Below are positions 3,788 to 34,747 of a stretch of 48,355 nucleotides of DNA, piece by piece. The notes under the pieces are model-generated. The model had not been told where the DNA came from. It made no database searches and saw nothing but the letters and a program-made list of their open reading frames with translations. Made by a program: the position numbers and the translations under genes. Position 1 is the first letter of the stretch, and every line of letters begins with the position of its first letter. Source of the DNA: a virus. The stretch covers positions 1 through 48,355 of the IMG/VR virus record IMGVR_UViG_3300033823_000022. One strand, 5' to 3'.

Positions 3788-6700
3788 ATGAAGTGCCTGT
3801 GTTTCATTCTGGCTTTTTTTCTGGGGGTAATGACCGCTTTTGCCGAGACGGATGTGGCCATCAGCTTGCGCGATAGCCGACTTCAAATTGGCAGCTACGC
3901 CAATCGTGGGCTGTGGATTCAGCCGAAGGGATTCCCGACATCCATATCACCATCAATAGTCCTGGGGCCGCCAATCATAACCCAAACGGATGTTAATGGG
4001 GATGTGACGCTTTCCAACCTTCAGGTCGGGGCGTATCTGGTGACGATTCAGGCCCCGCCAGTGCGCCAGAACTTCGCCTTCGCCGTTACGTCAACCAACC
4101 TCGGGATGATCAACGCCGCGGACAATCTGGCGGTGGAAACCGATTCAGTCTATCCCCCGGGGAGCACGGCCTGGTCGATTACCTCCAGCGATTCGAAGTA
4201 TGGAAGCAGCGGGGGCTCGGCCACAAACATCCCCGACATCCGCACCAACTCTTTCAACGCATTCGCCGGCAGCAACACGTTTGCAAACGTGGTGACGATC
4301 ACCAACGCGAACGGGGATGCTACGGCGCTGCGAATCTACACTGCTGACGGGACTGACGGTGGATGGTTGGTAACTCCAAATGATATCATTGGGATGGGCG
4401 GCGGGGTGCAGACGTTCGACGCGTCCTCGGCTGGTGACCTGACCATTCCGGGGACAATGACCTCTGGCACGCTGAACGTGCTGAACAGCGGCAGTCAGGT
4501 TGTGGCAAAGATTGATGCGGTAAGCGGCATGGTGACGGCGAACAACTTCGTCGGGAATGGGATCGGGTTATCGAGCTTGCTTCCTATGAATCGGCACTAC
4601 GACGCGATTGTAATGGCTGGAAGCAGCATCAGCAACGCGCTGGCCAACATCGTGGACGCTTCGAGTTCCAAGCGGTACATGCTCTATGTCACCAATGGAA
4701 TCTACGGGGAAATGCTCGTTCCAAAAAGTTACGTGGACATTGTGGGCCAGAGCCAAGCCGGGGTAATCATCACGAACAGCGTCAACAATTCCACCGTCAA
4801 TAACGTTTCAGGCACGGCGGGCGGCACGTTTATGATCGCCAACCTGACCGTGCAGCAGACATGGGGGGATTCTACAAACGCGAAATACGCAATCCACCTT
4901 GACCAGTCTCTTGTTGGCGATCCAGGCCGGCCCAAATCCATCGGAGGTTTCAGTCCGGCGGAGATGGTGCTCTACAACGTCACCGCCACCGCTCAGAATA
5001 CGTCGGCATTGGGAATTGGCCTATGGGCTTACCAGAGGCTTTACGTGGTGAATTGTACGCTGATTGACACCAATGAGACCGGCGTGTTTCTCCACAACAA
5101 TACTGCTAACGGGGGTCAGATTGCTCCCTGTGCAGCCTATTTCATAAACGATACCGTTGTTGGCTATTCTGGTGCTCAGGGCTACGGGTTGAGGTATGGC
5201 AATATCGGCTCTGGACAATCGGATTTCCTGCAAATTTCAGGTGGGAGTTACGTCGGCTCTACCAACATTTGGTGCTACAACATTGCTGGAGGGGGAGGAA
5301 CGGGGGAGACGTTCTACGCCTTTTCACCGTCGTACGCGCCCGTTGTTCAGGTTGACGCCGGGAATCAGTTGGCAGCATCGGCAATTCCATCAATACCATC
5401 TCCTAATCGTCCAGACCCCGGCTTCACTGAAGCGGAGACGCACATGACTCCGTTTGACGTTTGGACGCCGAACACCGGCGGCGGGCCAGGTTCTGCGTTG
5501 AATTTCCGCGAGCTGGTCGGCGGGGCCAGTTCAAACTCCATTTTAGGCCAGGTGTCAACCTATGCTTATCAGGTTGGACGCAATCGCATGGACTTCAACG
5601 TGGGCGCGTGGAACAATTACAATGATCCAGGCTCTCCAATACTGAGCCTGTTGAGCGGCGGGCTCGTCTCATTTGGTTCGACTAATTTCTCGCAGGGAGT
5701 GCCGATTCAATTCTTTGTCTCGCCAATCTGGATAAATAACGGCCAAGGCGGCGCCGGCGTTTTAGGAGAACTAGCCTGGGCTCAGAATGTAGTTGGAGGA
5801 AACAGCAATTCGATTGTCGGGGATATACAATCTTTCGCCTACGATAACGGTCGCAACCGGATGGACTTTCGAGTTGGCGATTGGAACAATAGCTCCAATG
5901 CCGGGCCGGTGATCCTGAGTCTGGTGAGCGGGGGCCAGATATGCGTGGACACGACTAATCCATCACCTTCAGGCGCAGCTCTGAATGTAAACGGGAGCGT
6001 TATTGCGACCAATGGTTACATAGAACAGGTTAGCTACGTGAATGGAAGTTACGCCTTTTTCGTTCACGACTGCATTGTTCTGGAAACCGCATCAACCAAT
6101 TCGTTAATTGTGCTTTCACTTGCGACAAGCATTCCCGGCGGATACCAGATTGTGAAGAACGTCGGCAACGGCATCTGCAATGTCTCAGCGCCAGGAGGGG
6201 AAACCATCAACGGAGTTTCATCGCTGAATCTGTCAGCAAATCAGTCCAGTCGTTTCAGCAGCGACGGGACAAACTGGGTGACGACTGCTATTGATTATGC
6301 GGGTAACTTTTCTGGCAGGCAGGATGGTCTAACGAACGCAGCCGGGCAGACCATCCCGCAGCAGATGGCGACCAACAACACGACGGGCAACGCGGCGACG
6401 GCGACCACGGTTACGAATGTGGTTCCGGGCGGAAACGTGGCGAGCAGCAACGGCACTTTCAGCGGGACGGTGACCGCGAGCAACCTGACGGCGGGAGCAA
6501 GTACTTTCACCGGTCAAGTGATGAACACAAACGCGACTACCGGGAACTACGCTCTTTATGACGCGAGCAAGGAACTGCGAACTAATGCCGTGACCGGCAG
6601 CTACTTCCTCGGGACGAACGGAAGCGGAAATTGGTTCAGCGGCAGCCAAAGTGTAACCATTTCAAACGGTCAGGGAGTGTTCAGCGGCCAGCTTACCACA

Positions 6701-8344: not shown

Positions 8345-8733
8345 AGGCCCCCACGCCTAAACTGTGCTGGCTCATCGCCCTACTGGCCGTAGCCGCGGTG
8401 CCGCCGCTGCCGCCAAGGCACCACAAGCCCTTCGCGTATCAGGGCGCGGGTGCCAAAGACCTGCTGGCCAAGAAGTCCCCGGCCCGTCCCATGTTGGTAA
8501 TTCAGGTGGGCAAGAAGCTGGTCTGGGACTGGACGCCCGACGCCCAGAACCCCGCCTCCAACGTCGTGTTCCTGATCCGGTCCAACTCCACCCTGATGGC
8601 GGTGCGCTACTCCTACCCGGTGGTGGCGGTGGTAAAGACCAACGAGTGGCCATTCACGGTGGACCAGTCCAAGCAGAGCGTGTTTTTCGTCGTCACGTCC
8701 TCCAACACGGTCACTCACCTGGAGAGCCCATGA
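8341..8733 (+). CDS. Small membrane-anchored or secreted protein
   Basis: I choose TTG 8341, which overlaps the fibre stop as TTGA, giving 130 residues; the frame is also open back to 8284. The N-terminus KLCWLIALLAVAAVPPLPP is a signal anchor or signal peptide. The remainder contains a predicted beta-domain with VQVGKKLVWDWTPD and a run of strands up to VTSSNTVTHLESP. It could carry a fibronectin-like domain; I do not recognise the family. Its stop overlaps the next start (ATGA). Confidence 0.65.
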   Translation: MKAPTPKLCWLIALLAVAAVPPLPPRHHKPFAYQGAGAKDLLAKKSPARPMLVIQVGKKLVWDWTPDAQNPASNVVFLIRSNSTLMAVRYSYPVVAVVKTNEWPFTVDQSKQSVFFVVTSSNTVTHLESP

Positions 8734-8954
8734 AGCCGACGCAGGATGAACTGACCGTGCAGGAAGACCTGATTGTGGCTTGGCGAGCGATGGGCCTATG
8801 CCACAAGCAAATCGCTGCTCTGCTGCATCGCAGCGAAAAGGTGGTTTCGTGGCACCTGGGGAACGTCAAGCGCAAGCTGGGGTACAACGACGTGGCACGA
8901 CTGACGCATCTGGCCATTTCTCGCAAGCTGGTGAAACTAAACGAAACCGTATGA
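8730..8954 (+). CDS. LuxR/GerE-type helix-turn-helix protein
   Basis: 74 residues, little more than one DNA-binding domain. Residues about 14-60 match the GerE four-helix fold: AWRAMGLCHKQIAALLHRSE followed by the recognition helix (VVSWHLGNVKRKLG) and a final LTHLAISRKL helix. ATG 8730 overlaps the upstream stop. Known family members bind DNA as dimers; here the sensing domain is absent. Its position at the tail/lysis boundary suggests late-gene control, which is inference. It overlaps the next gene by ATGA. Confidence 0.75.
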   Translation: MKPTQDELTVQEDLIVAWRAMGLCHKQIAALLHRSEKVVSWHLGNVKRKLGYNDVARLTHLAISRKLVKLNETV

Positions 8955-9043
8955 CTGAAGACAAAGAACAGACTGGTAATGTAGTCCTAAGCGGAACCGG
9001 GACCGGCTGGAACGACCATTCAGAAGGGGCCATGACTTTATGA
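8951..9043 (+). CDS. Very small coupled ORF (30 residues)
   Basis: ATG 8951 overlaps the HTH gene's stop (ATGA), and its own stop overlaps the next gene's ATG at 9040 (ATGA). This double coupling is the reason to call it. The peptide is acidic and glycine/threonine rich, with no motif. It could simply be a ribosome relay between its neighbours. Confidence 0.45.
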   Translation: MTEDKEQTGNVVLSGTGTGWNDHSEGAMTL

Positions 9044-9363
9044 GCGAAATCAAACAAACAAGCGAGCTTCCTGCTACCTATAATTCCGATGAGATAGCCA
9101 GGAAAGAAGAGCAGGAAAGGCAGCTTCTAACGATGGACAAGAAGGTTGACCGTGTGATTTACTTGCTCGAAGGAGATGGAGACTCAAGTCCTGGGTTGGC
9201 TAACCGAATCCACAAGATGGAGAAAACCGTCTATGGAAATGGTGAAATGGGATTGCAAACCCGCATGACGATCATGTGGCGGGCATGGGTATGGTTCCTT
9301 TGCACTATGAGCGCAGGGGTTGGATTCTTTGCCAACGAAATAGTCAAATCACTGCACAAGTAA
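9040..9363 (+). CDS. Small membrane protein with coiled N-terminus, holin-region
   Basis: 107 residues. An N-terminal charged helical part (KEEQERQLLTMDKKVDRVIY) leads to one transmembrane segment near the C-terminus (AWVWFLCTMSAGVGFFANEI). This is the architecture of XhlA-like and other phage holin-accessory proteins. It lies directly before two more membrane genes. Holin accessory is inference from topology and place. Confidence 0.65.
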   Translation: MSEIKQTSELPATYNSDEIARKEEQERQLLTMDKKVDRVIYLLEGDGDSSPGLANRIHKMEKTVYGNGEMGLQTRMTIMWRAWVWFLCTMSAGVGFFANEIVKSLHK

Positions 9364-9378
9364 TCGAAAGGAAAAGAC

Positions 9379-9882
9379 ATGGCTGACGCGCTTAACAAAA
9401 TGACGGCGTTCTTCGATTCGCTCTACGGAGCGCCGGGGGTGCTGCTCGTGCTCGTGACGTGCAACGCGCTCGGCTACTTCCTTAAGATGTCGTCGCTGTG
9501 CAGCACCCGTAGCATACCGAAGTGGGTTGTGGGCTGGGGCATTGCCGGCAACATGCTCTTCCGCGCTCTGCCCGTGCTGACCGGAGAATACGACTGGCCG
9601 GTTCTGGTGTGGATATTCGTGCAGCACTTTGGCAGGCTCGCGGCAATAGGCTTCCTGATTGGAGTGGCGTCCTGCATCCTTTATGACAAGGTGTTGGCGA
9701 AGCTGGAGGACCAATTCCCATGGCTGAAGGACTTCCTGGCGGTGAAGCCGAGCGGCGCCCCAGAAGCCAGCCACACGGAGACGGTGGCGGTGCAGACAGT
9801 GGACAAGGGAGCGCCGGTCGTCATCGTGCCGGGGACAGTCGGTGGAACTTCCCCGATTGCCGCGGAGCCGCCAAAAGCGTAG
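9379..9882 (+). CDS. Multi-spanning membrane protein, holin candidate
   Basis: 167 residues, with three hydrophobic segments at about 18-36, 50-66 and 73-98, the last containing two short hydrophobic stretches, then an A/P/V-rich soluble tail. The upstream GAAAGGAAAAGACATG gives a reasonable ribosome binding site. The layout resembles phage holins, but no endolysin is recognisable next door, so the lysis role is unproven. Confidence 0.6.
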   Translation: MADALNKMTAFFDSLYGAPGVLLVLVTCNALGYFLKMSSLCSTRSIPKWVVGWGIAGNMLFRALPVLTGEYDWPVLVWIFVQHFGRLAAIGFLIGVASCILYDKVLAKLEDQFPWLKDFLAVKPSGAPEASHTETVAVQTVDKGAPVVIVPGTVGGTSPIAAEPPKA

Positions 9883-12550: not shown

Positions 12551-13043
12551 ACGGAAGGACTTCCTGCTCTTGCCACTGACCAGCCAATTTCCAGACCAGC
12601 TTCCATTTTATCCAGTGGTATTGGTGAGCGGCCATTTTTAGATTTTCAAACCCGCCACGGAAAGCATGGGGTCCTTTGACCTCGATTCCCAGTGGTGGAT
12701 TAAATTCCGGGCAGAAGAAATCAACTTTGTACCAGAGGCCGTTTGCTAGTTTGAATCGGATGGCCTGCCTACACAGGTTTGGCTCGTGATCCAGAAATCG
12801 GCGCTCGTATTCCGTCTCAAGGACGTTCAGCAATGGCTTGGTGCTCTGGCGGATGCGGGATGGGCGGGCGGGCCGGTCTGTGGGTCCGGCGCTATGGGTT
12901 TCAGTGGCCGATTGCTCGGCATGATTTCCGGCTGCCAGCACACGTCGCTGCGACTCCGCACCGCCCGCCAAATTCGGGTTCCTCTTCAGCGTGCTCTGGC
13001 TCAGCGTCAGCACCCGGCCTGTCACTTTGATCTCAGGCGTCAT
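12549..13043 (-). CDS. DUF1064-like PD-(D/E)XK nuclease-fold protein
   Basis: 164 residues from ATG 13043; a longer in-frame extension to 13256 overlaps the upstream gene and is unlikely. The last 80 residues match the DUF1064/resolvase-like layout: an E-Y-E-x-R-F start, then YKVDFFCPEF and GIEVKGPHAFRGG, giving the D...E-x-K nuclease triad, and a W-K-L-V-W strand. Related phage proteins act on branched or broken DNA. It is the last gene of the long leftward operon, ending at the convergent terminator. Catalysis is inferred from motif only. Confidence 0.75.
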   Translation of the reverse strand: MTPEIKVTGRVLTLSQSTLKRNPNLAGGAESQRRVLAAGNHAEQSATETHSAGPTDRPARPSRIRQSTKPLLNVLETEYERRFLDHEPNLCRQAIRFKLANGLWYKVDFFCPEFNPPLGIEVKGPHAFRGGFENLKMAAHQYHWIKWKLVWKLAGQWQEQEVLP

Positions 13044-13386
13044 AGTCTGGTTCTGGTGGCTCCCAATGTTCCACTGCCGCCTCAAGCTGATCTTTGGTCC
13101 AGAACGAGTCGGGATCGAGCGCGGCGACCTCTCGCCTAATCCTGCGCAGCCACTTGATGAATCGCCGCCTACAATGCGGTCGCCCCTTGTCCTCAAGCTT
13201 GCGCATGGCATACCAACGCAAGTCGCCGTCCAGTTCCACGGAATCAACGCACTCAACCTCAGCGTGTCCGCAGACCTCCGTGCCGAATTCGTGGTCGAAT
13301 GAGTCGTCCACCCATTGAACCTCGCAGTTGGAAATTACGTCCAACTCGACGCCTCGAATGATGACCGTTCCGTGAATCGTAGGCAT
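13033..13386 (-). CDS. Hypothetical phage protein, 117 residues
   Basis: ATG 13386. An acidic beta-like N-terminal half (GTVIIRGVELDVISNCEVQW) is followed by a basic helical segment and an acidic tail. The opening resembles small phage proteins that begin with a short beta-hairpin, but I cannot assign a family. It overlaps the nuclease-like gene by 11 bp. Confidence 0.65.
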   Translation of the reverse strand: MPTIHGTVIIRGVELDVISNCEVQWVDDSFDHEFGTEVCGHAEVECVDSVELDGDLRWYAMRKLEDKGRPHCRRRFIKWLRRIRREVAALDPDSFWTKDQLEAAVEHWEPPEPDYDA

Positions 13387-13531: not shown

Positions 13532-13602
13532 GGTCGCTCTTTCTCAAGTTCGGCAATTTGGGTTTGACTCGTAATTCCCGTAATATCGCGCTTACAGGTC
13601 AC
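13528..13602 (-). CDS. Possible tiny ORF (24 residues) at the array edge
   Basis: GTG 13602 is preceded by CAGGATGAT; the ORF encodes a polar peptide ending LEKERP and its stop overlaps ATG 13531 as ATGA. It fits the coupling style of this operon but has no other support. It lies between the cassette array's left boundary and the phage backbone. Confidence 0.4.
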   Translation of the reverse strand: MTCKRDITGITSQTQIAELEKERP

Positions 13603-13615
13603 ATCATCCTGTTAA

Positions 13616-14440
13616 TCAATGGTTAGGCGGCAAGAGGACGCCTTGCGCCAGTTCGTTTGCTACTCGCTCGCAGGCCGTCTCGAAATGCTTAACGTCCTTT
13701 TCGATGCCCACGAATTTCCTGCCCGTGCGGATGCAGGCGATGGCCGTAGTCCCGCTGCCGGCGTAGCAGTCCAGCACTGTGTCGCCGGGGTTGGTATAGG
13801 TTTCCACCAGATACGTCATCAGGTTCACCGGCTTTTCTGTCGGGTGCGAGTTCGTTGTGTCGCGGTTTTTGGCCTTGATTATGGTGGTCGGGTAGTTACC
13901 CCATTCAGATTCGCCATGTTCGCTTTCCTGTCCGTAGGCATCTTCTGTTTTCGTGGCCTGTTTGTTTGGCCTTGAGTTTTTGAAGTTGCCACGCAGCAGC
14001 CCTTGCGGATTATAGGTGTGCCTGCCGCGACAGAACACCAGCACGTCCTCGTGTGCGCGGAGCGGTAGCAGTTTGGCGTTTAGGTGTCCCGTTGCTTTCG
14101 TCTTTTCCCAGACCATGCTGCATTTGTATTCCGCCTGATTTGATTTCACCAAGTCGCTCGTGAATGGTTGAGCCGAGGTCATTACTACCATTCCAGAGCA
14201 TCGCAGGGCGTTCCACCATTGCGCGAGGTCTGGCGCGACATCCCACTTGCACGCCGTCACCCCATACGGCGGGTCAGTCACTACCGCGTCACATTCGATT
14301 TCCGGCAGCACGTCGAGACAGTCCGCATTTATCAGCAGGCAGTCGCCGAGTTGCCGCCTAACAAATCGCTGGAGCCAATCGGCATTGCCCTTTGCCGTTT
14401 CCGGTGTCGCTGGCGTCAGGATGTTTGGTTTGTCGTTCAT
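13616..14440 (-). CDS. Cassette 1: DNA adenine or N4-cytosine methyltransferase (beta class)
   Basis: 274 residues. The catalytic motif DPPYG (about residue 56) comes before the SAM-binding motif DCYAGSGTT (about 224-232), the order of beta-class amino-methyltransferases that make N6-methyladenine or N4-methylcytosine. An HPTEKPVNLM stretch, typical of the family, lies between them. Complete in length. The start lies in the loop of attC 1 and the C-terminus PPNH crosses the array boundary. Probable role: protecting phage DNA from host restriction. No partner nuclease is visible. Confidence 0.9.
   Translation of the reverse strand: MNDKPNILTPATPETAKGNADWLQRFVRRQLGDCLLINADCLDVLPEIECDAVVTDPPYGVTACKWDVAPDLAQWWNALRCSGMVVMTSAQPFTSDLVKSNQAEYKCSMVWEKTKATGHLNAKLLPLRAHEDVLVFCRGRHTYNPQGLLRGNFKNSRPNKQATKTEDAYGQESEHGESEWGNYPTTIIKAKNRDTTNSHPTEKPVNLMTYLVETYTNPGDTVLDCYAGSGTTAIACIRTGRKFVGIEKDVKHFETACERVANELAQGVLLPPNH
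13622..13628 (+). other. Left boundary of the cassette array (lone R-box, attI-like junction)
   Basis: GTTAGGC matches the GTTRRRY crossover box, but the sequence to its left does not form an attC right arm. This is what an attI or secondary insertion site looks like after cassette insertion. The methyltransferase gene reads across it and ends PPNH using flanking bases. Confidence 0.75.
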
Positions 14441-14481
14441 GGTTGCTTACGATGCCGATGGCTCAGCTTTCTACGTTAGGC
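14356..14481 (+). repeat. attC site 1
   Basis: R boxes GCCTAAC and GTTAGGC are fully complementary. L boxes GCTGGAGCC and GGCTCAGC pair with one extra G on the left, and the stem continues ATCGGCAT/ATGCCGAT. The methyltransferase start codon lies in the loop. Confidence 0.92.
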
Positions 14482-14801
14482 GTCTTGGCGTGCATGATTA
14501 TACGCGCCATGCGCCGGATGATTTTTTCGAGCCGGTCGTGGTCTTTGTGATACCAGCAGGTTATTCCGGGAGTGATGTCGTATGAGTCATCGCCCCAGCG
14601 GTCGTCTGGTTCACATTCGCACCGCTCGTTTATGATTTGTTTTGCGAGCGCACGGCACGCCGCTCGCTTGGTGAACCATCGCCGACCGCCAGCCCGATAG
14701 ACTTTTGCGGTTTCGACGACGACGCCTAACAAGGGCGCTGGAGACAACCCCGATTGTGCATCGCAGTTGTCCGCTTCGGATTTTAGGAGTTTGGGCGTCA
14801 T
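14463..14801 (-). CDS. Cassette 2: hypothetical protein
   Basis: 112 residues from ATG 14801 in the loop of attC 2 (the frame is open to 14870). The leader encoded by the attC left arm is followed by a compact domain with KRAACRALAKQIINERCEC, a WGDDSYD acidic patch, then CWYHKDHDRLEKIIRRMARI, probably helical. The two cysteines and two histidines could bind metal. It ends TPNVES, with the stop in the L-box of attC 1. No family recognised. Confidence 0.7.
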   Translation of the reverse strand: MTPKLLKSEADNCDAQSGLSPAPLLGVVVETAKVYRAGGRRWFTKRAACRALAKQIINERCECEPDDRWGDDSYDITPGITCWYHKDHDRLEKIIRRMARIIMHAKTPNVES

Positions 14802-14834
14802 AGGTTCGGGGTGTCTCAGCTTCGTATGTTGGAC
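14724..14834 (+). repeat. attC site 2
   Basis: R boxes GCCTAAC and GTTGGAC; L arms GCTGGAGACA and TGTCTCAGC pair with the extra G on the left. A further extra A precedes CCCCG, which pairs with CGGGG on the right. Confidence 0.9.
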
Positions 14835-15328
14835 GAACAGGCTATGAGTTTTGCTGCGTCGCCAGCGCACAGAATATGGTGATAGAGCGGCAGGTCATCT
14901 CCGAGCACGTCGGCCCAGTCAGATAGTTGCGCTTCGGTCGCATCCAAATAGTGGTGTGTGTGCCGGATGCTTCCATCGTTCACTTCATACACCGCCCAGC
15001 CACACCCGTCTTTGTAGAGTTGGTAGCTTAGATGTTTCACCGTCCAACCAGGTCGGTCCAGCGAATCGCCGGGCTCAGTGGTCTTTGAGGGCTTGTCTTG
15101 CGTGGTTGTGTTCATGGTTTTCGCAGCGAAGTGATTCAGCACCCAATCAACATCTATGAGCGACCGCTCCAGCCGGTTGCGCGTCTCCCAGTCCATTGGC
15201 GCGGCCTTCAGGATCTCGTTCAAGCGCGTCACGATCAGGACCAGCCGGGCGCGAGCCTGCGAACCAATCAGTCGAGCAGACGGCGACTCGACGGTCAGTC
15301 GAACGGTTTCTTGCGTGCTCTGGCTCAT
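14816..15328 (-). CDS. Cassette 3: hypothetical protein, apparent fusion of two cassette genes
   Basis: 170 residues from ATG 15328 in the attC 3 loop (ATGA overlap with the upstream gene's stop). Residues 1-24 are the attC-encoded leader. Residues about 25-70 form a helical domain (RLNEILKAAPMDWETRNRLE). At residue 72 a second leader-like segment starts (MNTTTQDKPSKTTEPGDS), encoded over a lone attC left arm at 15042-15048, followed by a different domain (GWTVKHLSYQLYKDGCGWAV). I infer that a deletion removed the right half of an attC and fused two genes in frame. Ends SSNIRS. Confidence 0.65.
   Translation of the reverse strand: MSQSTQETVRLTVESPSARLIGSQARARLVLIVTRLNEILKAAPMDWETRNRLERSLIDVDWVLNHFAAKTMNTTTQDKPSKTTEPGDSLDRPGWTVKHLSYQLYKDGCGWAVYEVNDGSIRHTHHYLDATEAQLSDWADVLGDDLPLYHHILCAGDAAKLIACSSNIRS
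15042..15075 (+). repeat. Vestigial attC left arm inside cassette 3
   Basis: GTCCAAC (perfect RYYYAAC) followed by GGTCCAGCGAATCGCCGG, the same layout as the intact left arms. No matching right arm with GTTRRRY is found within the next 150 bp. Confidence 0.65.
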
Positions 15329-15364
15329 GGGGTTTTCGCGCCGCTGCTCACTTCGCTGTTGGCC
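15258..15364 (+). repeat. attC site 3
   Basis: R boxes TGCGAAC and GTTGGCC (central AAC/GTT kept); arms GTCGAGCAGACGGCG and CGCCGCTGCTCAC pair with two extra left-arm bases. Contains an ATGA stop/start pair of neighbouring genes in its loop. Confidence 0.88.
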
Positions 15365-15579
15365 ATGACGGCGTTCCACTCCTGTATCGCATCTGCCGTT
15401 TTGACGAACCATGCGAAAGTGCTTGGCTGGATTTTGCAGTCTTGGTTTTTGCATCTCACTTTCCCGTGTGATGCGATTGGCGTCTTACCGCAGAACGGGC
15501 AGGCCAACAAGACGGTCGAGCGAACAGCCGGATCGCTGGTCGGCGGGAGGGCGTCTTGAATGGCGGGCATCGTAGTCAT
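15325..15579 (-). CDS. Cassette 4: Lar-like restriction-alleviation zinc-ribbon protein
   Basis: 84 residues from ATG 15579. After the attC-encoded leader comes the Lar signature: LLACPFCGKTP, then VRCKNQDCKI, then an aromatic stretch ending in A-x-x-x-W-N (ADAIQEWN). This is the usual CPFCG...C-x4-C...WN pattern. Lar of the Rac prophage relieves type I restriction by modulating methylation; here function is inferred from family. The end ANSEVSSGAKTP is encoded by the right arm of attC 3. The stop overlaps the next start (ATGA). Confidence 0.85.
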   Translation of the reverse strand: MTTMPAIQDALPPTSDPAVRSTVLLACPFCGKTPIASHGKVRCKNQDCKIQPSTFAWFVKTADAIQEWNAVMANSEVSSGAKTP

Positions 15580-15609
15580 TCGCGGCTGTCGCTCACCTTT
15601 GCGTTGGCC
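15502..15609 (+). repeat. attC site 4
   Basis: R boxes GGCCAAC and GTTGGCC are fully complementary. Arms GGTCGAGCGAACAGCCG and CGGCTGTCGCTCACC pair with two extra left-arm bases. Confidence 0.92.
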
Positions 15610-15812
15610 TGCCACTCGATAGTGATGGTGCATTTGCGGTCACTCAGATTTACCGGCTCCCCTGTCAGCGTCGGCAGGAACATCCGTGGCGGCGAGTCGT
15701 GGTCCCAGATGAACACCGGCACAACGTATCCATGCAGCACCACGCGGCGCGTCCAGCCAACAAGACGGTGGAGCGGACGGGAGTTGCGGGTTTTCGCGAG
15801 TTTCTTGGTCAT
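15576..15812 (-). CDS. Cassette 5: hypothetical protein, 78 residues
   Basis: ATG 15812 lies in the attC 5 loop and overlaps the upstream stop (ATGA). Basic leader, then a beta-like stretch (VVLHGYVVPVFIWDHDSPPR) and TITIEWQANAKVSDSRE at the end, where the last ten residues come from the right arm of attC 4. No family recognised. Confidence 0.7.
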   Translation of the reverse strand: MTKKLAKTRNSRPLHRLVGWTRRVVLHGYVVPVFIWDHDSPPRMFLPTLTGEPVNLSDRKCTITIEWQANAKVSDSRE

Positions 15813-15857
15813 GGGTTGCCTTTGTGGTCATCGCCGCCGCTCACCTTGGCGTTCGGC
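15755..15857 (+). repeat. attC site 5
   Basis: R boxes AGCCAAC and GTTCGGC; arms GGTGGAGCGGACGG and CCGCCGCTCACC pair with two extra left-arm bases. Confidence 0.88.
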
Positions 15858-16087
15858 GGTTGCCAGACTTCGGCATAATGAGCCAGACTACTTGGTGATC
15901 GGCCCCACAGCACCCACCACTCTCCCCCTACTTCAGGATGCAGGACATGCGTCCTGCATTTGCTTTGCCGCCAGCGCCGTGGGAAGTGCGTGGTTACGAG
16001 CAGCGCCGAACCAAGCGGTCCAGCCAATGTCGGGAGCGCCGGTATGCCCAGTGCATCATCGAACGTTAATTGTGGCGCTCCCGTCAT
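15809..16087 (-). CDS. Cassette 6: hypothetical protein, 92 residues
   Basis: ATG 16087 in the attC 6 loop, ATGA overlap upstream. The N-terminal 26 residues (TGAPQLTFDDALGIPALPTL) are encoded by the left arm. The core has aromatic and basic residues (WWVLWGRSPSSLAHYAEVWQ) and the end PPNAKVSGGDD is attC-encoded. Function unknown. Confidence 0.65.
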   Translation of the reverse strand: MTGAPQLTFDDALGIPALPTLAGPLGSALLVTTHFPRRWRQSKCRTHVLHPEVGGEWWVLWGRSPSSLAHYAEVWQPPNAKVSGGDDHKGNP

Positions 16088-16108
16088 GGCTGACCTTGAT
16101 CGTTCGGA
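16005..16108 (+). repeat. attC site 6
   Basis: R boxes GCCGAAC and GTTCGGA; arms GGTCCAGCCAATG and CATGGCTGACC pair with two extra left bases. Then comes a perfect 10-bp stem CGGGAGCGCC/GGCGCTCCCG, the strongest hairpin of the set. Confidence 0.93.
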
Positions 16109-16380
16109 ATGTCGTTGCAGTCCTGCACCAATGGCCGTATGACCGCTTCGAGTCGAAGAATGTCGTGTGCGTACAAGCTCGGCCCTGAGCCTCTGATATT
16201 CGCCTGCCTCACTAGCTCGTCCAATGAGGCCAGCACTTCACGGCAGCCGATTGGCGTTCCGCCGTACACGCCGCAGACGCACCGCCTTGGTTCCCCTACG
16301 ATGATATGTGCATTCATGGATTCCGAACCAGCCGCTGCACGCGACGGCGGGTTAGGGTTTCTGTTTGCGTCTTTTGTCAT
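16084..16380 (-). CDS. Cassette 7: hypothetical protein, 98 residues
   Basis: ATG 16380 in the attC 7 loop. Leader TKDANRNPNPPSRAAAGSES is attC-encoded and resembles the leader of cassette 9. A core with three cysteines (RCVCGVYGGTPIGC) may bind zinc; two helical segments follow. Ends IPNDQGQP, with the junction dipeptide PN. No family recognised. Confidence 0.68.
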   Translation of the reverse strand: MTKDANRNPNPPSRAAAGSESMNAHIIVGEPRRCVCGVYGGTPIGCREVLASLDELVRQANIRGSGPSLYAHDILRLEAVIRPLVQDCNDIPNDQGQP

Positions 16381-16428
16381 AGTTACGTCCTTGGTTCTTC
16401 ACGCCGCGCGTGAGCTTGGTCGTTCGGT
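16322..16428 (+). repeat. attC site 7
   Basis: R boxes TCCGAAC and GTTCGGT; arms GCTGCACGCGACGGCG and CGCCGCGCGTGAGC pair with two extra left-arm bases. Confidence 0.88.
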
Positions 16429-16649
16429 GGTATGAGACCGTCCATCCATTCCGAGAGCGGTGGCCAGATTGCTTTCGAGTGCCCGTCCATGCTGACGGCG
16501 ACGGTTGCGCCGCATTTTTGACACTGCTTGATGGTCCCAAAGTGCGGTCTCCAGTCGTGGGGGCATTGTTGCCAGTCCACCGAACCAGACGGTCGAGCAG
16601 ACGGCGACTCGCCGGTCAGTCGAGAGGTTTCTTGCGTGCTGGCAGTCAT
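16383..16649 (-). CDS. Cassette 8: small zinc-binding-type protein
   Basis: 88 residues from ATG 16649 (ATGA overlap) in the attC 8 loop. Leader TASTQETSRLTGESPSARPS is attC-encoded and nearly matches that of cassette 3. The core has CPHDWRPHF and CQKCGATVAV, a likely Cys/His metal site. Ends IPPNDQAHARREEPRT. Function unknown; the compact core resembles small phage zinc proteins. Confidence 0.7.
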   Translation of the reverse strand: MTASTQETSRLTGESPSARPSGSVDWQQCPHDWRPHFGTIKQCQKCGATVAVSMDGHSKAIWPPLSEWMDGLIPPNDQAHARREEPRT

Positions 16650-16685
16650 GGGGTTTTCGCGCCGCTGCTCACTTCGGTGTTCGGA
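16579..16685 (+). repeat. attC site 8
   Basis: R boxes ACCGAAC and GTTCGGA; arms GTCGAGCAGACGGCG and CGCCGCTGCTCAC, almost identical to attC 3, pair with two extra left-arm bases. Confidence 0.9.
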
Positions 16686-16927
16686 GGTTCATATTCACCA
16701 GACCCTTTACAGTCCGGGCATGTCGCGTAGCCGTCGCCGTGGATGCACTCCCCGAGGCCGTGGCAAATGTCGTCGATGCACACCATGATCTCTCCCTGGC
16801 CGTCGCATAGCTGGCACACGGGAGGACCGTCGTCGTATGTTTCCCAGTCCGCGCTAGACTCCGAACCAGGCGTGTCAGCCAACGGCGGGTTGGGGTTTTC
16901 GTTTGGTGTAGTCGTGCTCATAGTCAT
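16646..16927 (-). CDS. Cassette 9: DnaJ-type zinc-finger protein
   Basis: 93 residues from ATG 16927 in the attC 9 loop. After the leader (TMSTTTPNENPNPP) come CQLCDGQGEIMVC and CPDCKGSGEYE, the C-x2-C-x-G-x-G motif of DnaJ central domains, plus further Cys and His between. The DnaJ J-domain is absent. Such stand-alone zinc fingers are frequent in phages and may bind nucleic acid or protein. Ends PPNTEVSSGAKTP from the right arm of attC 8. Confidence 0.78.
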   Translation of the reverse strand: MTMSTTTPNENPNPPLADTPGSESSADWETYDDGPPVCQLCDGQGEIMVCIDDICHGLGECIHGDGYATCPDCKGSGEYEPPNTEVSSGAKTP

Positions 16928-16962
16928 TGGTTTTCGCGCCGTGGCTGCGCTTGTCGTTCGGC
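16860..16962 (+). repeat. attC site 9
   Basis: R boxes TCCGAAC and GTTCGGC; arms GTCAGCCAACGGCG and CGCCGTGGCTGC pair with extra left-arm bases. Confidence 0.86.
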
Positions 16963-17483
16963 TGCTTAGCGTCTTGCACTTCCCACAGCCATTTGGTTTG
17001 CGTCGGGTGCGTATCCACTCGCGGGCGGCTTGCTCGTGTCCACTTGCCGCCGCCGCGCTCGCCCACGAGCCGGAAGCCTGCACCCTTGAGGCTTCCGCCG
17101 CCTTCCTCGGGCAGTGTGTAGGTTATCAGTCGCGTGTATCCCATCGCCCGCGCAGCTCGCCACGCGGCCCGGTAGAGCATCGAACATCCGTTGGGCACGC
17201 CGTCCGTGCAGCAGCGGTTTACTTCCAGCGTCCAGCCGTTGTCCGCCATCCGGCTCACGGGCCTGCCCACGATAGCCACACCGCGCACCTTTCCGGCTTC
17301 GTCGGCCAGGGCGATGCTGTATTTGTGGCCAGTTACCGGGTCGTGGTGGCGGTGGTTCTCGCTCACGTAGGCATTTGCTTCTTCGAGGCTCGTCGGCACA
17401 ATCCGCATCCGAACCAAGTCACTAGAGCGAATGCAGGCGGACGCTGCCTGTTCGCAAATGGGTATGTCAGTGGCCGCCTGCAT
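16875..17483 (-). CDS. Cassette 10: XF1762-family (GNAT-like) phage protein
   Basis: 202 residues from ATG 17483 in the attC 10 loop. The leader is attC-encoded; the core matches the XF1762 family: L-x-E-A-N-A-Y-V, NHRHHDPVTGHKYSIAL, GVAIVGRPVSRM, LEVNRCCTDG, CSMLYRAAWRAARAMGY and LITYTLPEEGG. These proteins have a GNAT-like fold; their substrate is unknown. After the junction dipeptide PN the frame continues about 20 residues past the usual attC-encoded tail, to 16875, overlapping the next gene's start in another frame. Confidence 0.88.
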   Translation of the reverse strand: MQAATDIPICEQAASACIRSSDLVRMRIVPTSLEEANAYVSENHRHHDPVTGHKYSIALADEAGKVRGVAIVGRPVSRMADNGWTLEVNRCCTDGVPNGCSMLYRAAWRAARAMGYTRLITYTLPEEGGGSLKGAGFRLVGERGGGKWTRASRPRVDTHPTQTKWLWEVQDAKQPNDKRSHGAKTNDYEHDYTKRKPQPAVG

Positions 17484-17503
17484 CGCTCAGTTTGGTGTTC
17501 GGT
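17408..17503 (+). repeat. attC site 10
   Basis: R boxes TCCGAAC and GTTCGGT; arms ACTAGAGCGAATGCAGGCGG and CCGCCTGCATCGCTCAGT pair over about 18 bp with two extra left-arm bases. Confidence 0.93.
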
Positions 17504-17769
17504 GAAGCCACGATGCGCAGCAGAATCGGCTGACCGCTTCGCGGGCATCGCGTCCAGTGCGTCAGCGCGCCGCACGGGTACGTGAGCCTGTGGAAGCTGA
17601 TCCTGCCGTGGTTGTGTCCGCACCTAGCACACCGAACAAGTCGCTTGAGGACAACAGCCGCCGCGCCTTTGGTTTTCGATCTTTGGGGTTTCATATTATC
17701 GCTTCTGGCTTCCAGAACCCGGCGAATCAATCTGTTGTTGTCCATAAATATTGCTTGCAGTGACCGCAT
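17467..17769 (-). CDS. Cassette 11: zinc-ribbon protein
   Basis: 100 residues from ATG 17769 (other in-frame Met codons follow at about residues 9 and 26). Basic N-terminal part, then RCARCGHNHGRISF and CGALTHWTRCPRSGQP, two Cys pairs forming a probable zinc ribbon. Ends ASPNTKLSDAGGH, where the part from PN onward is encoded by the right arm of attC 10; it overlaps the next start by 17 bp. Function unknown; nucleic-acid binding is plausible. Confidence 0.72.
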   Translation of the reverse strand: MRSLQAIFMDNNRLIRRVLEARSDNMKPQRSKTKGAAAVVLKRLVRCARCGHNHGRISFHRLTYPCGALTHWTRCPRSGQPILLRIVASPNTKLSDAGGH

Positions 17770-17830
17770 TGGGTCGGCTCAGTGCTCATACATTTTGGTT
17801 TTCGCGCCGTGGCTCAGCTCTGCGTTAGGC
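17631..17830 (+). repeat. attC site 11 (degenerate, long)
   Basis: The right arm CGCCGTGGCTCAGC with GTTAGGC is typical. The only left-arm candidate, ACCGAAC then GCTTGAG at 17631, pairs poorly beyond the L-box and makes the site 200 bp, longer than its neighbours. The left half may be mutated or interrupted. Confidence 0.55.
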
Positions 17831-18093
17831 GACCATATCACTGTTTCTTTTCTCCGTATGACTCGATACTTTACACGATCATTTGTTTCAGACTCGCCCC
17901 ATAGCACCATGTCACGTTCGGTTTTTATTCGGGCATCTATATCGGATGCGTTGCAGTCATGCCATTCGCGGTATGTTCCAACCATGCACAGAGGCATACG
18001 CCGTTGCAAAATAGCCGTGTCGCCTAACAAATCAGTGGAGCACAACGGCGGGATTGCCGTGCGCTCCATCGTTGCTGTAATTTGGTCGCTCAT
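17779..18093 (-). CDS. Cassette 12: hypothetical protein, 104 residues
   Basis: ATG 18093 follows the upstream stop by one base; a GTG at 18105 is an alternative. The first 25 residues are attC-encoded. The core (CMVGTYREWHDCNASDIDAR) has two cysteines and a C-terminal basic beta-stretch VKYRVIRRKETVIW. Ends SPNAELSHGAKTKMYEH, where the part from PN onward is from the right arm of attC 11. Function unknown. Confidence 0.68.
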   Translation of the reverse strand: MSDQITATMERTAIPPLCSTDLLGDTAILQRRMPLCMVGTYREWHDCNASDIDARIKTERDMVLWGESETNDRVKYRVIRRKETVIWSPNAELSHGAKTKMYEH

Positions 18094-18143
18094 TTTACGT
18101 TCCACGCTTGTCTCCCCCGCCGTGGCTCACTTCTGCGTTGGGC
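18022..18143 (+). repeat. attC site 12
   Basis: R boxes GCCTAAC and GTTGGGC (both perfect to consensus); arms AGTGGAGCACAACGGCGG and CCGCCGTGGCTCACT pair with extra left-arm bases. Confidence 0.9.
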
Positions 18144-18436
18144 TGAGATGCGATTTCGGAGATCAACCTATTCTTCTCGTCGCACCATTGGCATTGCTGT
18201 TGTTCCCATTCGTCATCCGAGTAGAGCGAGCCTTCCATTGACGGTTCGCCCGCGTCCAATGCCATTTCTCGCGTCACCACTTGGCGAGATCGTATTTGCG
18301 CGGCAATTGCTCCGCTTCCGTCACAGCATGGACATTTGGCCACTTTCAGCAGTTCGACGGCCCGGCCCAACCAGCCGGTGCAGCGAATGAGCGCCGTACC
18401 GTCAGGGGCAACAGGATGCTTGGGAGTGGTGCTCAT
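18095..18436 (-). CDS. Cassette 13: DnaJ-type zinc-finger protein
   Basis: 113 residues from ATG 18436 (ATGA overlap) in the attC 13 loop. CPCCDGSGAIAAQ and CQWCDEKNRL supply the two Cys pairs, with an acidic linker between. Similar in style to cassette 9 but not the same protein. Ends QPNAEVSHGGGDKRGT, the part after PN from the right arm of attC 12. Possibly an RNA- or protein-binding zinc finger. Confidence 0.75.
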   Translation of the reverse strand: MSTTPKHPVAPDGTALIRCTGWLGRAVELLKVAKCPCCDGSGAIAAQIRSRQVVTREMALDAGEPSMEGSLYSDDEWEQQQCQWCDEKNRLISEIASQPNAEVSHGGGDKRGT

Positions 18437-18457
18437 CGCTGACCTTTCTCGTTCTGC
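18365..18457 (+). repeat. attC site 13
   Basis: R boxes GCCCAAC and GTTCTGC; arms GGTGCAGCGAATGAGCG and GTGCTCATCGCTGACC pair with two extra left-arm bases. Shortest site, 93 bp. Confidence 0.87.
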
Positions 18458-19155
18458 GTCTTCACGTCTCGCCAGCAGTTCGCCGCAAAGAATGCGTTTG
18501 CAAACCCCTTTGGCGTAGCAGATCGCAGGGTTTTGGTTTTCTCAGATTTCCCGCCGAGCTTCTGTAGCCAGCTACCTTGGCTGCAAGCCCGGACGGGCTT
18601 CACGCTTCGGTCTCCTACCCACAGCGGCAGCGGGCGCGTGAATTGTCCGTAGAGTGCGGTTTTCTTGGTATAGGGATCGCCGAAGTCACACGGCTGAAAA
18701 TACCAGGGCTTGCCGAGTTCGGGCAGGAGTTTGTGCAGCCGACCCACCGGGTTTTCGAGCGCCCACCAGTCGGGCTTGCAGAAGTCCACGCAGCGGAGCA
18801 CCTGCAATACGAGTTCCAGGCTTTTGTCAGTTCGCCCGTCCGCGTCTTTGGCCTTCCAGTATTGCGCCCCACTCGCCGCAAAGTCTGTGCATGGTGGCGC
18901 GGCGAGGATTGCATCCACGGTCCCGAAGTTGTCCCTCACGTTTTCCATCAGCCATGTTGCGCTGAGGTCCATTACGTCTATTCCGTGCTTGAGGTCTATC
19001 CGCACCACGTTCGCGCCGGCTTCCTCGTAAGGCAGCGACCAGTTCCCGGAGTAGTCGAACAGGCTCAGCACCGTTTTACCAGACGCAGAACCAGGCGCTC
19101 CAGCAGACGGCGGGCTCGCCGGTCTGTCGATGGTTTGGGATGTGCTGGTAGTCAT
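18433..19155 (-). CDS. Cassette 14: C5-cytosine DNA methyltransferase-like protein
   Basis: 240 residues from ATG 19155 (ATGA overlap) in the attC 14 loop. After the leader (RPASPPSAGAPGSASG) come TVLSLFDYSGNWS (motif I position, but not the usual F-x-G-x-G), AAPPCTDFA with the catalytic Cys (motif IV) and WALENPVGRL (motif VI ENP). Shorter than bacterial Dcm enzymes, as usual for phage forms. Likely modifies phage DNA; loss of the standard motif I glycines leaves some doubt about activity. Just before the end lies RSATPKGFANAF. The end TQNEKGQR has QN at the junction. Confidence 0.82.
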   Translation of the reverse strand: MTTSTSQTIDRPASPPSAGAPGSASGKTVLSLFDYSGNWSLPYEEAGANVVRIDLKHGIDVMDLSATWLMENVRDNFGTVDAILAAPPCTDFAASGAQYWKAKDADGRTDKSLELVLQVLRCVDFCKPDWWALENPVGRLHKLLPELGKPWYFQPCDFGDPYTKKTALYGQFTRPLPLWVGDRSVKPVRACSQGSWLQKLGGKSEKTKTLRSATPKGFANAFFAANCWRDVKTQNEKGQR

Positions 19156-19191
19156 AGATTCTTCGCGCCGCTGCTCACTTCGCTGTTAGGG
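19085..19191 (+). repeat. attC site 14 (last in the array)
   Basis: R boxes GCAGAAC and GTTAGGG; arms CTCCAGCAGACGGCG and CGCCGCTGCTCAC pair with two extra left-arm bases. The right box is followed by backbone sequence, marking the array's far boundary. Confidence 0.88.
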
Positions 19192-19424: not shown

Positions 19425-20129
19425 CTATGGGGTAATTCCGACTTCGACGTAGGGGTTGTCCTCGCTCTCGGGGCTGGGTACGAACGCCCTGCGCTTCGGC
19501 GGCGGGCCGCCGTTGCGCTCGCAGAGCTTCTGCCAGCCGGCATCTAGGTCTTCCAGGAACCCCTGCACAGCTTCGTCCAAGGCGCTCTGGAACTTGTCAT
19601 CTCGCGGCACGTTCAGAATCAGTAGTGGCAGGCCGCGTCGAAAGCTGCAAAAATACCAGTGCGAGAATCCGGTAACGTACATGCTTGTTTGGACCTGCGC
19701 GACGTAATCAGGCGGGACAACCCCATCCAGCAAGTATCGGATATGCTTCTCAAGGTGCGGCGATTTCAATTCCAGGCCGCAAGTGTCTCCCATCAGAAGG
19801 CCGTCAGGCGAGCATCCGACGTTCTCATTACTGCCGGTGATGAAGGCTGCGTTGCGCACAGGCAGGCCGGTTTCAAGCGTGAAGGCGGGCTTGGCGTAAT
19901 CCTCCAGCAAGTGGCCCTGGTCTAAATCCCACACGCCTTGCGCGGCGGGCAGTGGGGCCTGCAACCATCTCTCGGCCAGCTTCTCCATCAGATACGACTT
20001 CGGGCCGTCTCCGGTCTTGATCTTGCCCAGTGGAGTAATCAGCCGGTCAGCCTCCGAGGCAGTCACCTTGCCAGCCCGGAGCATATACCACTCAAGGCTG
20101 TTCTGCTCGATTTGGTCGTGGATCTTCAC
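19425..20129 (-). CDS. YqaJ-like phage recombination exonuclease
   Basis: 234 residues from GTG 20129 (GTGA overlap with the upstream stop). PD-(D/E)XK family: an N-terminal E-W-x-x-x-R-x-G-K-V-T-A-S motif, GHLLEDYA (Glu about 76), SPDGLL (Asp about 109), LELKSPH (Glu about 120, Lys about 122) and QVQTSMYVTG (Gln motif). Family members are 5'-3' exonucleases that load a single-strand annealing protein. The ERF gene just upstream supplies that partner, forming a Red-like system. Confidence 0.9.
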   Translation of the reverse strand: MKIHDQIEQNSLEWYMLRAGKVTASEADRLITPLGKIKTGDGPKSYLMEKLAERWLQAPLPAAQGVWDLDQGHLLEDYAKPAFTLETGLPVRNAAFITGSNENVGCSPDGLLMGDTCGLELKSPHLEKHIRYLLDGVVPPDYVAQVQTSMYVTGFSHWYFCSFRRGLPLLILNVPRDDKFQSALDEAVQGFLEDLDAGWQKLCERNGGPPPKRRAFVPSPESEDNPYVEVGITP

Positions 20130-20857
20130 TTGCTGGACTTCTCCTTGCGCCGAAGCATGGTGTCCAGTTCGGCGTAGCGGTCGGCCTGGATGCCTGAAAA
20201 CGTCTTGGCCTTGGCAAACTCAAGGAACGCCGGCACGTTCGCGTTGACCTCGCCGCATCGGCGCTCAAGCTCGAATGCCTGCTCTTTGGTTATCAGCTTG
20301 TCGGGGTCGCCTTCCATCCCGGCATCCTGCTCGCTGGTGAGGCAGTCCTGGCGAACCACGATATTGAGGCAGTTCAGCAGCGCGTTGCGCTTGGCGGTCG
20401 TGCTGGCCTTGCAATCGGCCTGGGCGTCACTATCAGACCTGCCGCCGGTCGTGCGCACGGCGAATGAATTGCTTTGGCTGTGCCCTCCGGCGTGTCGCAA
20501 CGTGCAGGTCTCGACAGTTCGGTTCTCTTTGAAGTCCTGTGAGAATGACACCGAGAATCCATTGGCCGCGAGATGCTTTGAAATCTTGTCCATCACGTCC
20601 TCAAATCGGGCGTACTTGCCCCGGTTCGGGATAACGGTCATGGCTACAATGACAGGCAGTTCCGATTGCAGCTTGACGAAGGCGGTATTGAACTCGCGCT
20701 CAGCCGACATGGCTAAAAGCTCTTTCATTACAGCCACCTTTTCCGGGTTTATGTCCTGCTCGATCACAGCCCGGAATACCTGCTCGACGGTGAGGATTTG
20801 CGCAGGCGCCACCGCGCCGCCCTCGCTCTTGATAACTGAAAGGTTGGGGTCGGTCAT
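20126..20857 (-). CDS. ERF-family single-strand annealing protein
   Basis: 243 residues. ERF core from about residue 55: REFNTAFVKLQSELPVI, NRGKYARFEDVMDKISKHL, a G-F-S-V-S-F stretch, then SDSDAQADCKASTTAKRNAL with the conserved aromatic/Gly replaced by a shorter loop. C-terminal acidic and basic helical tail. Family members anneal complementary strands during recombination or genome circularisation. Coupled to the gene upstream and to the exonuclease downstream by ATGA and GTGA overlaps. Confidence 0.88.
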   Translation of the reverse strand: MTDPNLSVIKSEGGAVAPAQILTVEQVFRAVIEQDINPEKVAVMKELLAMSAEREFNTAFVKLQSELPVIVAMTVIPNRGKYARFEDVMDKISKHLAANGFSVSFSQDFKENRTVETCTLRHAGGHSQSNSFAVRTTGGRSDSDAQADCKASTTAKRNALLNCLNIVVRQDCLTSEQDAGMEGDPDKLITKEQAFELERRCGEVNANVPAFLEFAKAKTFSGIQADRYAELDTMLRRKEKSSK

Positions 20858-21204: not shown

Positions 21205-21759
21205 TCACGGCTTTTTGAACGGGTTGACGATCTCGCGCAAGCGATTCGTCTGCCACTCAGTTTCAGCGGCCCAGGCAGCGTCCCAGGCAGCGGCCCAGGC
21301 AGCGCCCCTGGCAGCGTCCCTGGCAGCGGCCCAGGCAGCGGCCCAGGCAGCGTCCCAGGCAGCGTCCCAGGCAGCGTCCCAGGCAGCGTCCCAGGCAGCG
21401 TCCCTGGCAGCGGCCCAGGCAGCGTCCCTGGCAGCGCCCCTGGCAGCGCCCCTGGCAGCTAAAGCGTCGGGGGATTGATCTGTAATTGTTCTGCGGCTTG
21501 CTTCAATCGCCAATCGAGGCCGGTTGTCGTTAGGATGTTTTTCTTCAAAAAAATGTAGCGTGTGTCCTGCACAGTCGCAGGCAAAGGTTCGAGCTTGTGC
21601 GTCGGTCCAAAGGTGGAACTTTGATAATCCCCAGCATAACCAGTCCGCTCGTTTGCACGTTTTCCAGGCTCTCAAAACGGTCTTGGACTTCTTTAGGAAT
21701 GCCGCTCCGCCATAGCATGGATTGGAGTCGAGTATCTGTTTTAGTGTGGGAGGTTTCAT
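21205..21759 (-). CDS. Protein with long Ala/Trp/Arg/Asp repeat domain
   Basis: 184 residues from ATG 21759; a longer frame to 21828 overlaps the next gene. The N-terminal half ([17 protein letters not shown], then [14 protein letters not shown]) is followed by a repeat region of the form [11 protein letters not shown] for about 75 residues and a short charged end. Similar heptad-like AAW repeats occur in phage and bacterial proteins often annotated as putative immunity proteins; their job is unproven. Confidence 0.72.
21265..21462 (-). repeat. 12-bp tandem repeats in the AAW-repeat gene
   Basis: About sixteen copies of a 12-bp unit, GCAGCGTCCCAG or close variants (GCAGCGGCCCAG, GCAGCGCCCCTG) on the + strand. 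Unit length keeps the frame, so copy number can vary. Confidence 0.92.
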
Positions 21760-21778
21760 AGGCTCAAAGCGAGGCTGG

Positions 21779-21970
21779 TCATTTGACCTTGGCAATGTCG
21801 CGCTCGACTCGCCGCCATTCGCGTTCATCCGCCCGGGCCTTCGCTAATCTGGTCGCCCATGCTTTGCGTCCGTTGGACTGGCGTTCCTCTTTCGTCATCT
21901 GCGCCGCGCGTATGCGCCCGCCTTTAGCAAGCTTCTGGCGCAGGCTCTCGGGAATTGAACTCGGTTTCAT
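21779..21970 (-). CDS. Small highly basic protein
   Basis: 63 residues, about a third K or R, helical (RQKLAKGGRIRAAQMTKEER). Likely binds nucleic acid, which is inference from charge alone. No family recognised. Confidence 0.62.
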   Translation of the reverse strand: MKPSSIPESLRQKLAKGGRIRAAQMTKEERQSNGRKAWATRLAKARADEREWRRVERDIAKVK

Positions 21971-34746: not shown

Positions 34747-34747
34747 A

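What the first reader, a model, noticed from the sequence alone, without database searches (positions are those of the whole stretch)
13622..19191. An integron cassette array sits inside a phage replication operon
Fourteen attC-like sites, thirteen of them clear, are visible by eye: complementary RYYYAAC/GTTRRRY boxes, paired L boxes with the extra base always in the left arm, a second extra A in most, and variable loops, all in one orientation and spaced 245-853 bp apart. The sites look alike in layout but differ in sequence, as attC sites from many cassettes do. They are embedded between a YqaJ recombinase gene and a DUF1064 gene on a genome with capsid and tail genes. Integron cassettes carried by a phage, without an integrase in the window, are to my knowledge rare or undescribed.
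Basis: partly seen in the sequence, partly recalled or inferred. Interest (0 to 1): 0.97.

Follow-up and report, generated by a model that had tools for sequence, protein, structure and literature searches.

The report
Phage integron array with back-to-front genes
This phage carries a row of about 14 swappable gene cassettes separated by true integron-type recombination sites, with the genes facing the opposite way to normal integrons and apparently ribosome-coupled through the sites; related phages encode their own integron integrase, so some phages appear to run a gene-exchange system thought to belong mainly to bacteria.

Summary
A covariance model built from 13 of the sites finds 14 sites at 14356-19191 and none elsewhere in 48 kb. 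An independent structural scan finds 9 of them against 0.07 expected, all with canonical attC layout and one polarity. A near-identical phage (L001) lacks exactly one cassette, 13623-14475, with the break inside the 8-bp GTTAGGC(G): the footprint of integron-type recombination. So this is a phage-borne cassette array (CALIN).

Phage CALINs were published in 2023 (PMC9892861), so 'undescribed' is too strong. Three things appear new. (1) All cassette genes run antisense to attC polarity, unlike three control integrons tested here. (2) All 14 genes cross the R box in one reading frame and end inside the neighbouring attC, where the next gene usually starts; 7 of 14 overlap as ATGA. This suggests a translationally coupled, order-independent operon. 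(3) Three other phage contigs encode a distinct clade of integron integrase next to a conserved attI, through which the first cassette's gene reads to end at the intI start; at least two carry similarly inverted arrays.

The window itself has no intI, so recombination must be in trans or ancestral. Coupling and activity are inferred, not shown.

The parts
13590..13628 (+). Array anchor: attI-like left end; GTTAGGC at 13622-13628 is the point where L001 and the window diverge
   Evidence: sequence identical to L001 left of and through GTTAGGC, different to the right. attI identity is inferred only; weak resemblance to the attI of IntI-bearing phages
13623..14475 (.). Cassette 1 (853 bp), present in window, exactly absent in L001
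13616..14440 (-). N4/N6 DNA methyltransferase gene of cassette 1 (ends PPNH*)
   Evidence: Pfam N6_N4_Mtase 7e-29, phrog_67 1e-56
14356..14481 (+). attC 1
   Evidence: R1 72.1 bits; structural scan L=13,R=0
14463..14801 (-). cassette gene 2, unknown
   Evidence: Starts and stops inside attC sites
14724..14834 (+). attC 2
   Evidence: R1 66.1 bits; scan L=12
14816..15328 (-). fused cassette gene spanning the decayed half-site at 15042
15042..15082 (+). left half of a decayed attC
   Evidence: GTCCAACCAGGTCGGTCCAGC at 15042, aligned to an L005 attC half; no right half
15258..15364 (+). attC 3
   Evidence: R1 88.7 bits
15325..15579 (-). cassette gene, zinc-ribbon/Lar-like (weak)
   Evidence: Pfam Lar_restr_allev E=0.03, below cut-off
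15502..15609 (+). attC 4
   Evidence: R1 88.7 bits
15576..15812 (-). cassette gene, unknown
15755..15857 (+). attC 5
   Evidence: R1 76.2 bits
15809..16087 (-). cassette gene, unknown
16005..16108 (+). attC 6
   Evidence: R1 77.7 bits; fold z -5.2
16084..16380 (-). cassette gene, unknown
16322..16428 (+). attC 7
   Evidence: R1 87.6 bits
16383..16649 (-). cassette gene, unknown
16579..16685 (+). attC 8
   Evidence: R1 95 bits
16646..16924 (-). cassette gene with CxxC zinc-finger-like motifs
   Evidence: 23 of 34 differences from L001 fall at codon position 3 of this frame
16860..16962 (+). attC 9
   Evidence: R1 87.3 bits
16875..17483 (-). Mom-like DNA modification gene
   Evidence: phrog_1384 2e-36
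17408..17503 (+). attC 10
   Evidence: R1 64.1 bits; fold z -6.4
17467..17769 (-). cassette gene, zinc-finger-like
17631..17830 (+). attC 11, long loop (200 nt), weak
   Evidence: R1 35.8 bits, not in the training set
17779..18093 (-). cassette gene, unknown
18022..18143 (+). attC 12; 80% identical to an attC of IntI-bearing phage G010
   Evidence: R1 70.5 bits
18095..18436 (-). cassette gene, zinc-finger-like
18365..18457 (+). attC 13
   Evidence: R1 54.3 bits; scan L=11
18433..19155 (-). C5-cytosine DNA methyltransferase gene
   Evidence: phrog_757 5e-48, Pfam DNA_methylase
19085..19191 (+). attC 14, last site, at the 3' end of a core gene
   Evidence: R1 83.9 bits
19152..19421 (-). phage core gene whose C-terminus is encoded by attC 14
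   Evidence: N-terminus 74% identical over 27 aa to the gene next to YqaJ in L002
19425..20129 (-). YqaJ-type exonuclease
   Evidence: Pfam YqaJ 2e-18
20126..20857 (-). ERF single-strand annealing protein
   Evidence: Pfam ERF 5e-9

Best explanation
The region is a phage-borne integron cassette array (a CALIN) inside the phage recombination/replication operon. Each cassette is [TTRRRY - body - attC] in + orientation, and an integron integrase supplied in trans (by a host integron or by another phage) gains and loses cassettes at G^TT of the right-hand R boxes; the first position at 13622 acts as the attI-like entry point. The cassette genes lie on the minus strand, co-directional with the phage operon and antisense to attC polarity. 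Each gene typically starts inside its own attC loop, runs through the L''/R'' half and the body, crosses the cassette boundary in a fixed frame (YYY-AAC), and stops inside the next attC, where the next gene starts. Ribosomes finishing one gene would open the hairpin and re-initiate on the next, so any cassette should be expressible in any order without its own promoter. Cargo includes three DNA-modification genes (two methyltransferases and a Mom-like protein), suggesting a shuffling store of anti-restriction functions. Shown: the sites, their polarity, the gene direction, the frame lock and the precise cassette absence. Inferred: IntI catalysis in trans, translational coupling, anti-restriction benefit.
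For: Sites and polarity. The polarity test was checked on three known integrons, where attC polarity equals gene strand (class 1 in P1, Vibrio, Shewanella). Gene direction: all homology hits are on minus, 23/34 third-position differences in the one diverged cassette, codon usage favours the minus ORF in 14 of 15. Precise absence of 13623-14475 in L001. Frame: 14/14 sites with the AAC-codon frame longest; 7/14 ATGA overlaps and 12/14 with a start within about 25 nt of the stop. The same layout with IntI: phage contigs G010, G208 and G209 carry TIGR02249 integrases over cut-off (270.7, 282.9, 276 bits). Their attI is conserved to the left of G^TT and variable to the right, and the last gene reads through attI to the intI start. 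In G010 and G209 attC polarity is opposite to gene direction.
Against: No intI in the window or in L001, and no recombination was observed directly. A second difference between window and L001 (16005-16877) has its left break at a left R box, not at G^TT; it looks like homeologous recombination or an unexplained event. Some sites do not fold better than shuffles. The resemblance of 13590-13628 to attI is weak. R1 was trained on the window sites, so it does not test attC-hood independently; it found no attC near the Myxococcota integrases or in phage TJE1. The frame lock is weaker in other phages (38 of 51 sites in frame 0, 13 in frame 1).
Confidence: 0.8

Rival explanations
1. Ordinary phage CALIN as already described: bacterial cassettes captured by chance through homologous or illegitimate recombination, with gene orientation a coincidence and no special expression logic.
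For: Phage CALINs with methyltransferases are published. Sense arrays also exist in phages (Rctr41k and TJE1).
Against: All 14 sites share one polarity and one exit frame. The same inverted layout occurs in several different phages, some with intI. One attC pattern hit 5 viral contigs but only one unsupported place among 84,980 species genomes.
Confidence: 0.15
2. The real polarity is that of the genes, so these are normal cassettes with an inverted L-box asymmetry, recombining at the left R boxes.
For: The 16005-16877 replacement in L001 begins at a left R box, and the right half of the new attC there resembles the one that precedes the same body in the window.
Against: The 13623-14475 absence is exact at right boxes. 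In three IntI-bearing phages the conserved attI lies left of G^TT in the same polarity. The L-arm asymmetry matches three canonical integrons.
Confidence: 0.08
3. The hairpins are translational or transcriptional regulatory elements between operon genes (not recombination sites), and the genes move by homologous recombination at these repeats.
For: Stop and start codons sit inside the hairpins. The phage encodes ERF and YqaJ, which can recombine short homologies (general knowledge).
Against: The R-box and L-box layout and one-sided bulges match attC. Related arrays adjoin an integron integrase. The 8-bp junction at GTTAGGC(G) is IntI-like.
Confidence: 0.07

Closest known systems
Phage CALINs of Qi et al. 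2023 (PMC9892861): TJE1, PH101, P12002L, MW202573
   Same: attC arrays without intI in phage genomes; DNA methyltransferase cargo; IntI1 shown to recombine such sites
   Different: Those are shorter, and the cassettes of TJE1 and PH101 are described as having the typical bacterial structure; here 14 sites, all genes antisense to attC, one fixed exit frame, and a sister-phage cassette absence. In TJE1 the one site I could score is sense
Complete integrons in prophages (Vibrio Va_90-11-286_p16, Shewanella M16-3, P1 L-II)
   Same: intI, attI and attC on a phage
   Different: Captured chromosomal or class 1 integrons with genes in sense orientation, diverging from intI. G010, G208 and G209 here have a separate IntI clade and genes running toward intI
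Reverse integrons of Treponema (PMC3607928, PMC7691350)
   Same: intI and cassette genes point the same way
   Different: There intI is flipped and reads toward attI and the cassettes; in the IntI-bearing phages here intI keeps its normal place and direction and the cassette genes are flipped, reading toward attI and intI
Translational coupling of cassettes via attI1 ORF-11 (review PMC8876359)
   Same: Termination-reinitiation as a way to express cassette genes lacking a ribosome-binding site
   Different: Known for a leader ORF or fused cassettes; here start and stop of nearly every gene pair sit inside attC

Membership tests
Integron cassette array / CALIN | At least two attC sites with complementary R and L boxes, same orientation, extrahelical bases in L'' | tested here: met
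Integron cassette array / CALIN | Sites score with an independent published attC model (IntegronFinder/HattCI) | not testable with these tools
   The model is not available; my own structural scan, checked on three known integrons, stands in
Integron cassette array / CALIN | Cassettes gained or lost exactly at G^TT of R' | tested here: met
   One case, 13623-14475; a second difference does not follow the rule
Integron cassette array / CALIN | Cassette gene in sense orientation, upstream of its attC (typical, not strictly defining) | tested here: not met
   All genes antisense
Complete integron | intI gene (TIGR02249) in the same genome | tested here: not met
   None in window or L001; met in related-array phages G010 and G209, and in G208 with one weak site
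Complete integron | attI site | tested here: inconclusive
   Anchor at 13622 behaves as a first insertion point but resembles phage attI only weakly
Integron integrase (for G010/G208/G209) | Tyrosine recombinase with the IntI-specific insertion and score over curated cut-off | tested here: met
   TIGR02249 270.7/282.9/276 bits vs cut-off 265; G010 protein collinear with IntI4 2A3V through the insertion region
Functional recombination site | Recombination by IntI in an assay | not testable with these tools
   Needs experiment

The most novel reading that the evidence does not exclude
Phages possess their own class of integron: a phage-specific IntI clade and a phage-circulating cassette pool in which genes are inverted relative to attC and phase-locked, so each newly captured gene is plugged into a translationally coupled operon and the last one couples to intI itself. 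The window phage is an IntI-less user of this shared pool.
Probability: 0.5. Interest if true: 0.92.

Novelty: new variant of a known kind. Interest (0 to 1): 0.8.

Why it matters
Integrons are seen as bacterial (and lately archaeal) platforms, with phages as occasional carriers. If phages run their own integrons with inverted, frame-compatible cassettes, that is a dedicated viral system for swapping anti-restriction and other small genes, and it gives a concrete route for cassettes to move between phages and host integrons. It also offers a testable design principle: recombination sites that double as stop-start junctions, so gene order can be shuffled without breaking expression.

Tried and rejected
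Rfam search of the window: no family matched; as far as I know attC is not an Rfam family, so this says little. R1 on Myxococcota integrase loci and TJE1: no hits; the broader R2 likewise, so neither is a universal attC model and absence there is not evidence. Scan of bacterial species genomes with one attC pattern: one hit in an Archangium MAG that the model does not support, rejected as chance. Relatives by the 13033-13386 protein, DnaB and terminase: none; two distant ones; L001 plus one distant relative. The attI pattern scan was written before all attI sequences were read and returned only G010 plus unrelated places. Reading cassette polarity as that of the genes was considered because of the 16005-16877 difference, then rejected on the cassette-1 junction and the attI comparison. 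L001 does not prove completeness of the window genome: same linear order, with 1.3 kb more at one end.
Full report
What is there. The window is a 48,355-base virus record with terminase, portal, head protease, major head protein, DnaB and primosomal genes. From 13622 to 19191, between the ERF-YqaJ recombination genes and unassigned early genes, lies a row of inverted-repeat sites. Thirteen were aligned; the consensus fold has 19 pairs, 14 with compensatory changes. A covariance model from them finds 14 sites in the window, all between 14356 and 19191 and all on one strand. Thirteen of these trained the model; the long one at 17631-17830 did not. A separate scan that knows only the attC layout finds 9 of the 14, always with the extra base in the left arm, plus one weak site elsewhere; shuffles give 0.07 per 48 kb. 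Run on three known integrons carried by phages, the scan puts attC and gene on the same strand, as expected.

Genes point the other way. In the window the attC polarity is + but the genes are on the minus strand. This rests on homologues (N6/N4 methyltransferase, Mom-like protein, C5 methyltransferase), on codon-position bias of differences from a sister phage (23 of 34 at position 3), and on codon usage (14 of 15).

Recombination footprint. L001, a 48,572-base virus contig, is nearly identical around the array. It lacks 13623-14475 exactly: left flank ...CAATGGTTAGGC, then GTCTTGG.... The two ends share only GTTAGGC(G). That is what IntI recombination at G^TT between a first-position site and attC 1 would leave. 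A second difference, 16005-16877, replaces several cassettes by one roughly 80-85% similar version and another attC; its left break is at a left R box and is not explained by the same rule. Phage ERF/YqaJ recombination is a plausible cause.

Frame-locked read-through. At all 14 sites the longest open frame entering the R box on the coding strand is the one that reads AAC as a codon. The proteins therefore share tails such as PNAEVSxG. The stop lies inside the attC, and a start codon for the next gene lies within about 25 nt of it at 12 or more of 14 sites, overlapping as ATGA at 7. If the three frames were equally likely, the chance of 14 in one frame would be about 6e-7; but over 51 phage sites frame 2 never occurs, so the real number is less extreme. 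I infer translational coupling: a ribosome ending in the loop would open the hairpin and re-initiate. The shared frame would let any cassette follow any other.

The same system elsewhere. Pattern and model searches found arrays in other viral contigs. Between these and the window, DNA similarity in the arrays is confined to the attC sites (about 75-88% over 43-128 bp), with unrelated bodies. G010 carries four sites and, next to them, an integron integrase. A search with it found G208 and G209, and a remnant in G210. The three proteins score over the TIGR02249 cut-off; the G010 protein aligns with IntI4 (2A3V) through the IntI-specific region; and they form a supported clade apart from the bacterial IntIs sampled (0.991; a small tree). 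Phage hallmark genes are present: terminase in G010, portal in G208, portal and terminase in G210, a Mu-like transposase in G209. In all three the sequence before G^TT is conserved and diverges after it, which marks attI and its polarity. The first cassette's gene ends ANSV[LI]NK.., inside attI, at or just before the intI start. In G010 and G209 attC polarity is opposite to the genes; G208 has one weak site. So in these phages intI sits in the canonical place and direction, and the cassette genes are flipped toward it.

What is known. Phage CALINs and recombination of phage attC by IntI1 are published (PMC9892861). Treponema reverse integrons flip intI, not the genes (PMC3607928). Translational coupling is known for attI1 ORF-11 (PMC8876359). 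My literature searches found no report of integrons with antisense, frame-locked cassettes or of a phage IntI clade; that covers open-licence papers only.

Limits. No experiment; no intI in the window; completeness of the window genome is unknown; the anchor's attI identity is weak; the bacterial comparison is one pattern scan and four loci. Not every phage array is inverted: Rctr41k, which has its own integron integrase (383 bits), carries sense cassettes.

Noticed in passing
L040 (KX853513.1, Virus Rctr41k) 4680-5678 and 6641-9434: An annotated 'xerD' is an integron integrase (TIGR02249 383 bits) with five attC-like sites in sense orientation downstream; apparently an unrecognised phage integron.
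   Followed up: partly
L050/L038 (G210), L050:15975-16085: The C-terminal 37 residues of the phage IntI (86% identical to G010) remain next to an attC array: a phage integron losing its integrase, a possible route to arrays like the window's.
   Followed up: partly
window 16005-16877 versus L001: Several cassettes replaced by one diverged cassette with a different attC; left break at a left R box, not explained by G^TT recombination.
   Followed up: partly
L003, L008, L010 (viral contigs): A further set of contigs with compact 57-60 nt attC sites; several neighbouring ORFs are also antisense.
   Followed up: no
L005 8573-9953: A DnaC-like loader and a replication initiation protein lie between two attC sites, as if core replication genes sat in a cassette interval.
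   Followed up: no
window 21205-21828: Alanine-rich protein with many degenerate repeats ([11 protein letters not shown]..), weak Imm5-like match (E=0.001, below cut-off).
   Followed up: no
window 33520-35866: C-methyltransferase (Methyltransf_14) and radical-SAM-like genes beside the terminase, possible auxiliary metabolic genes.
   Followed up: no
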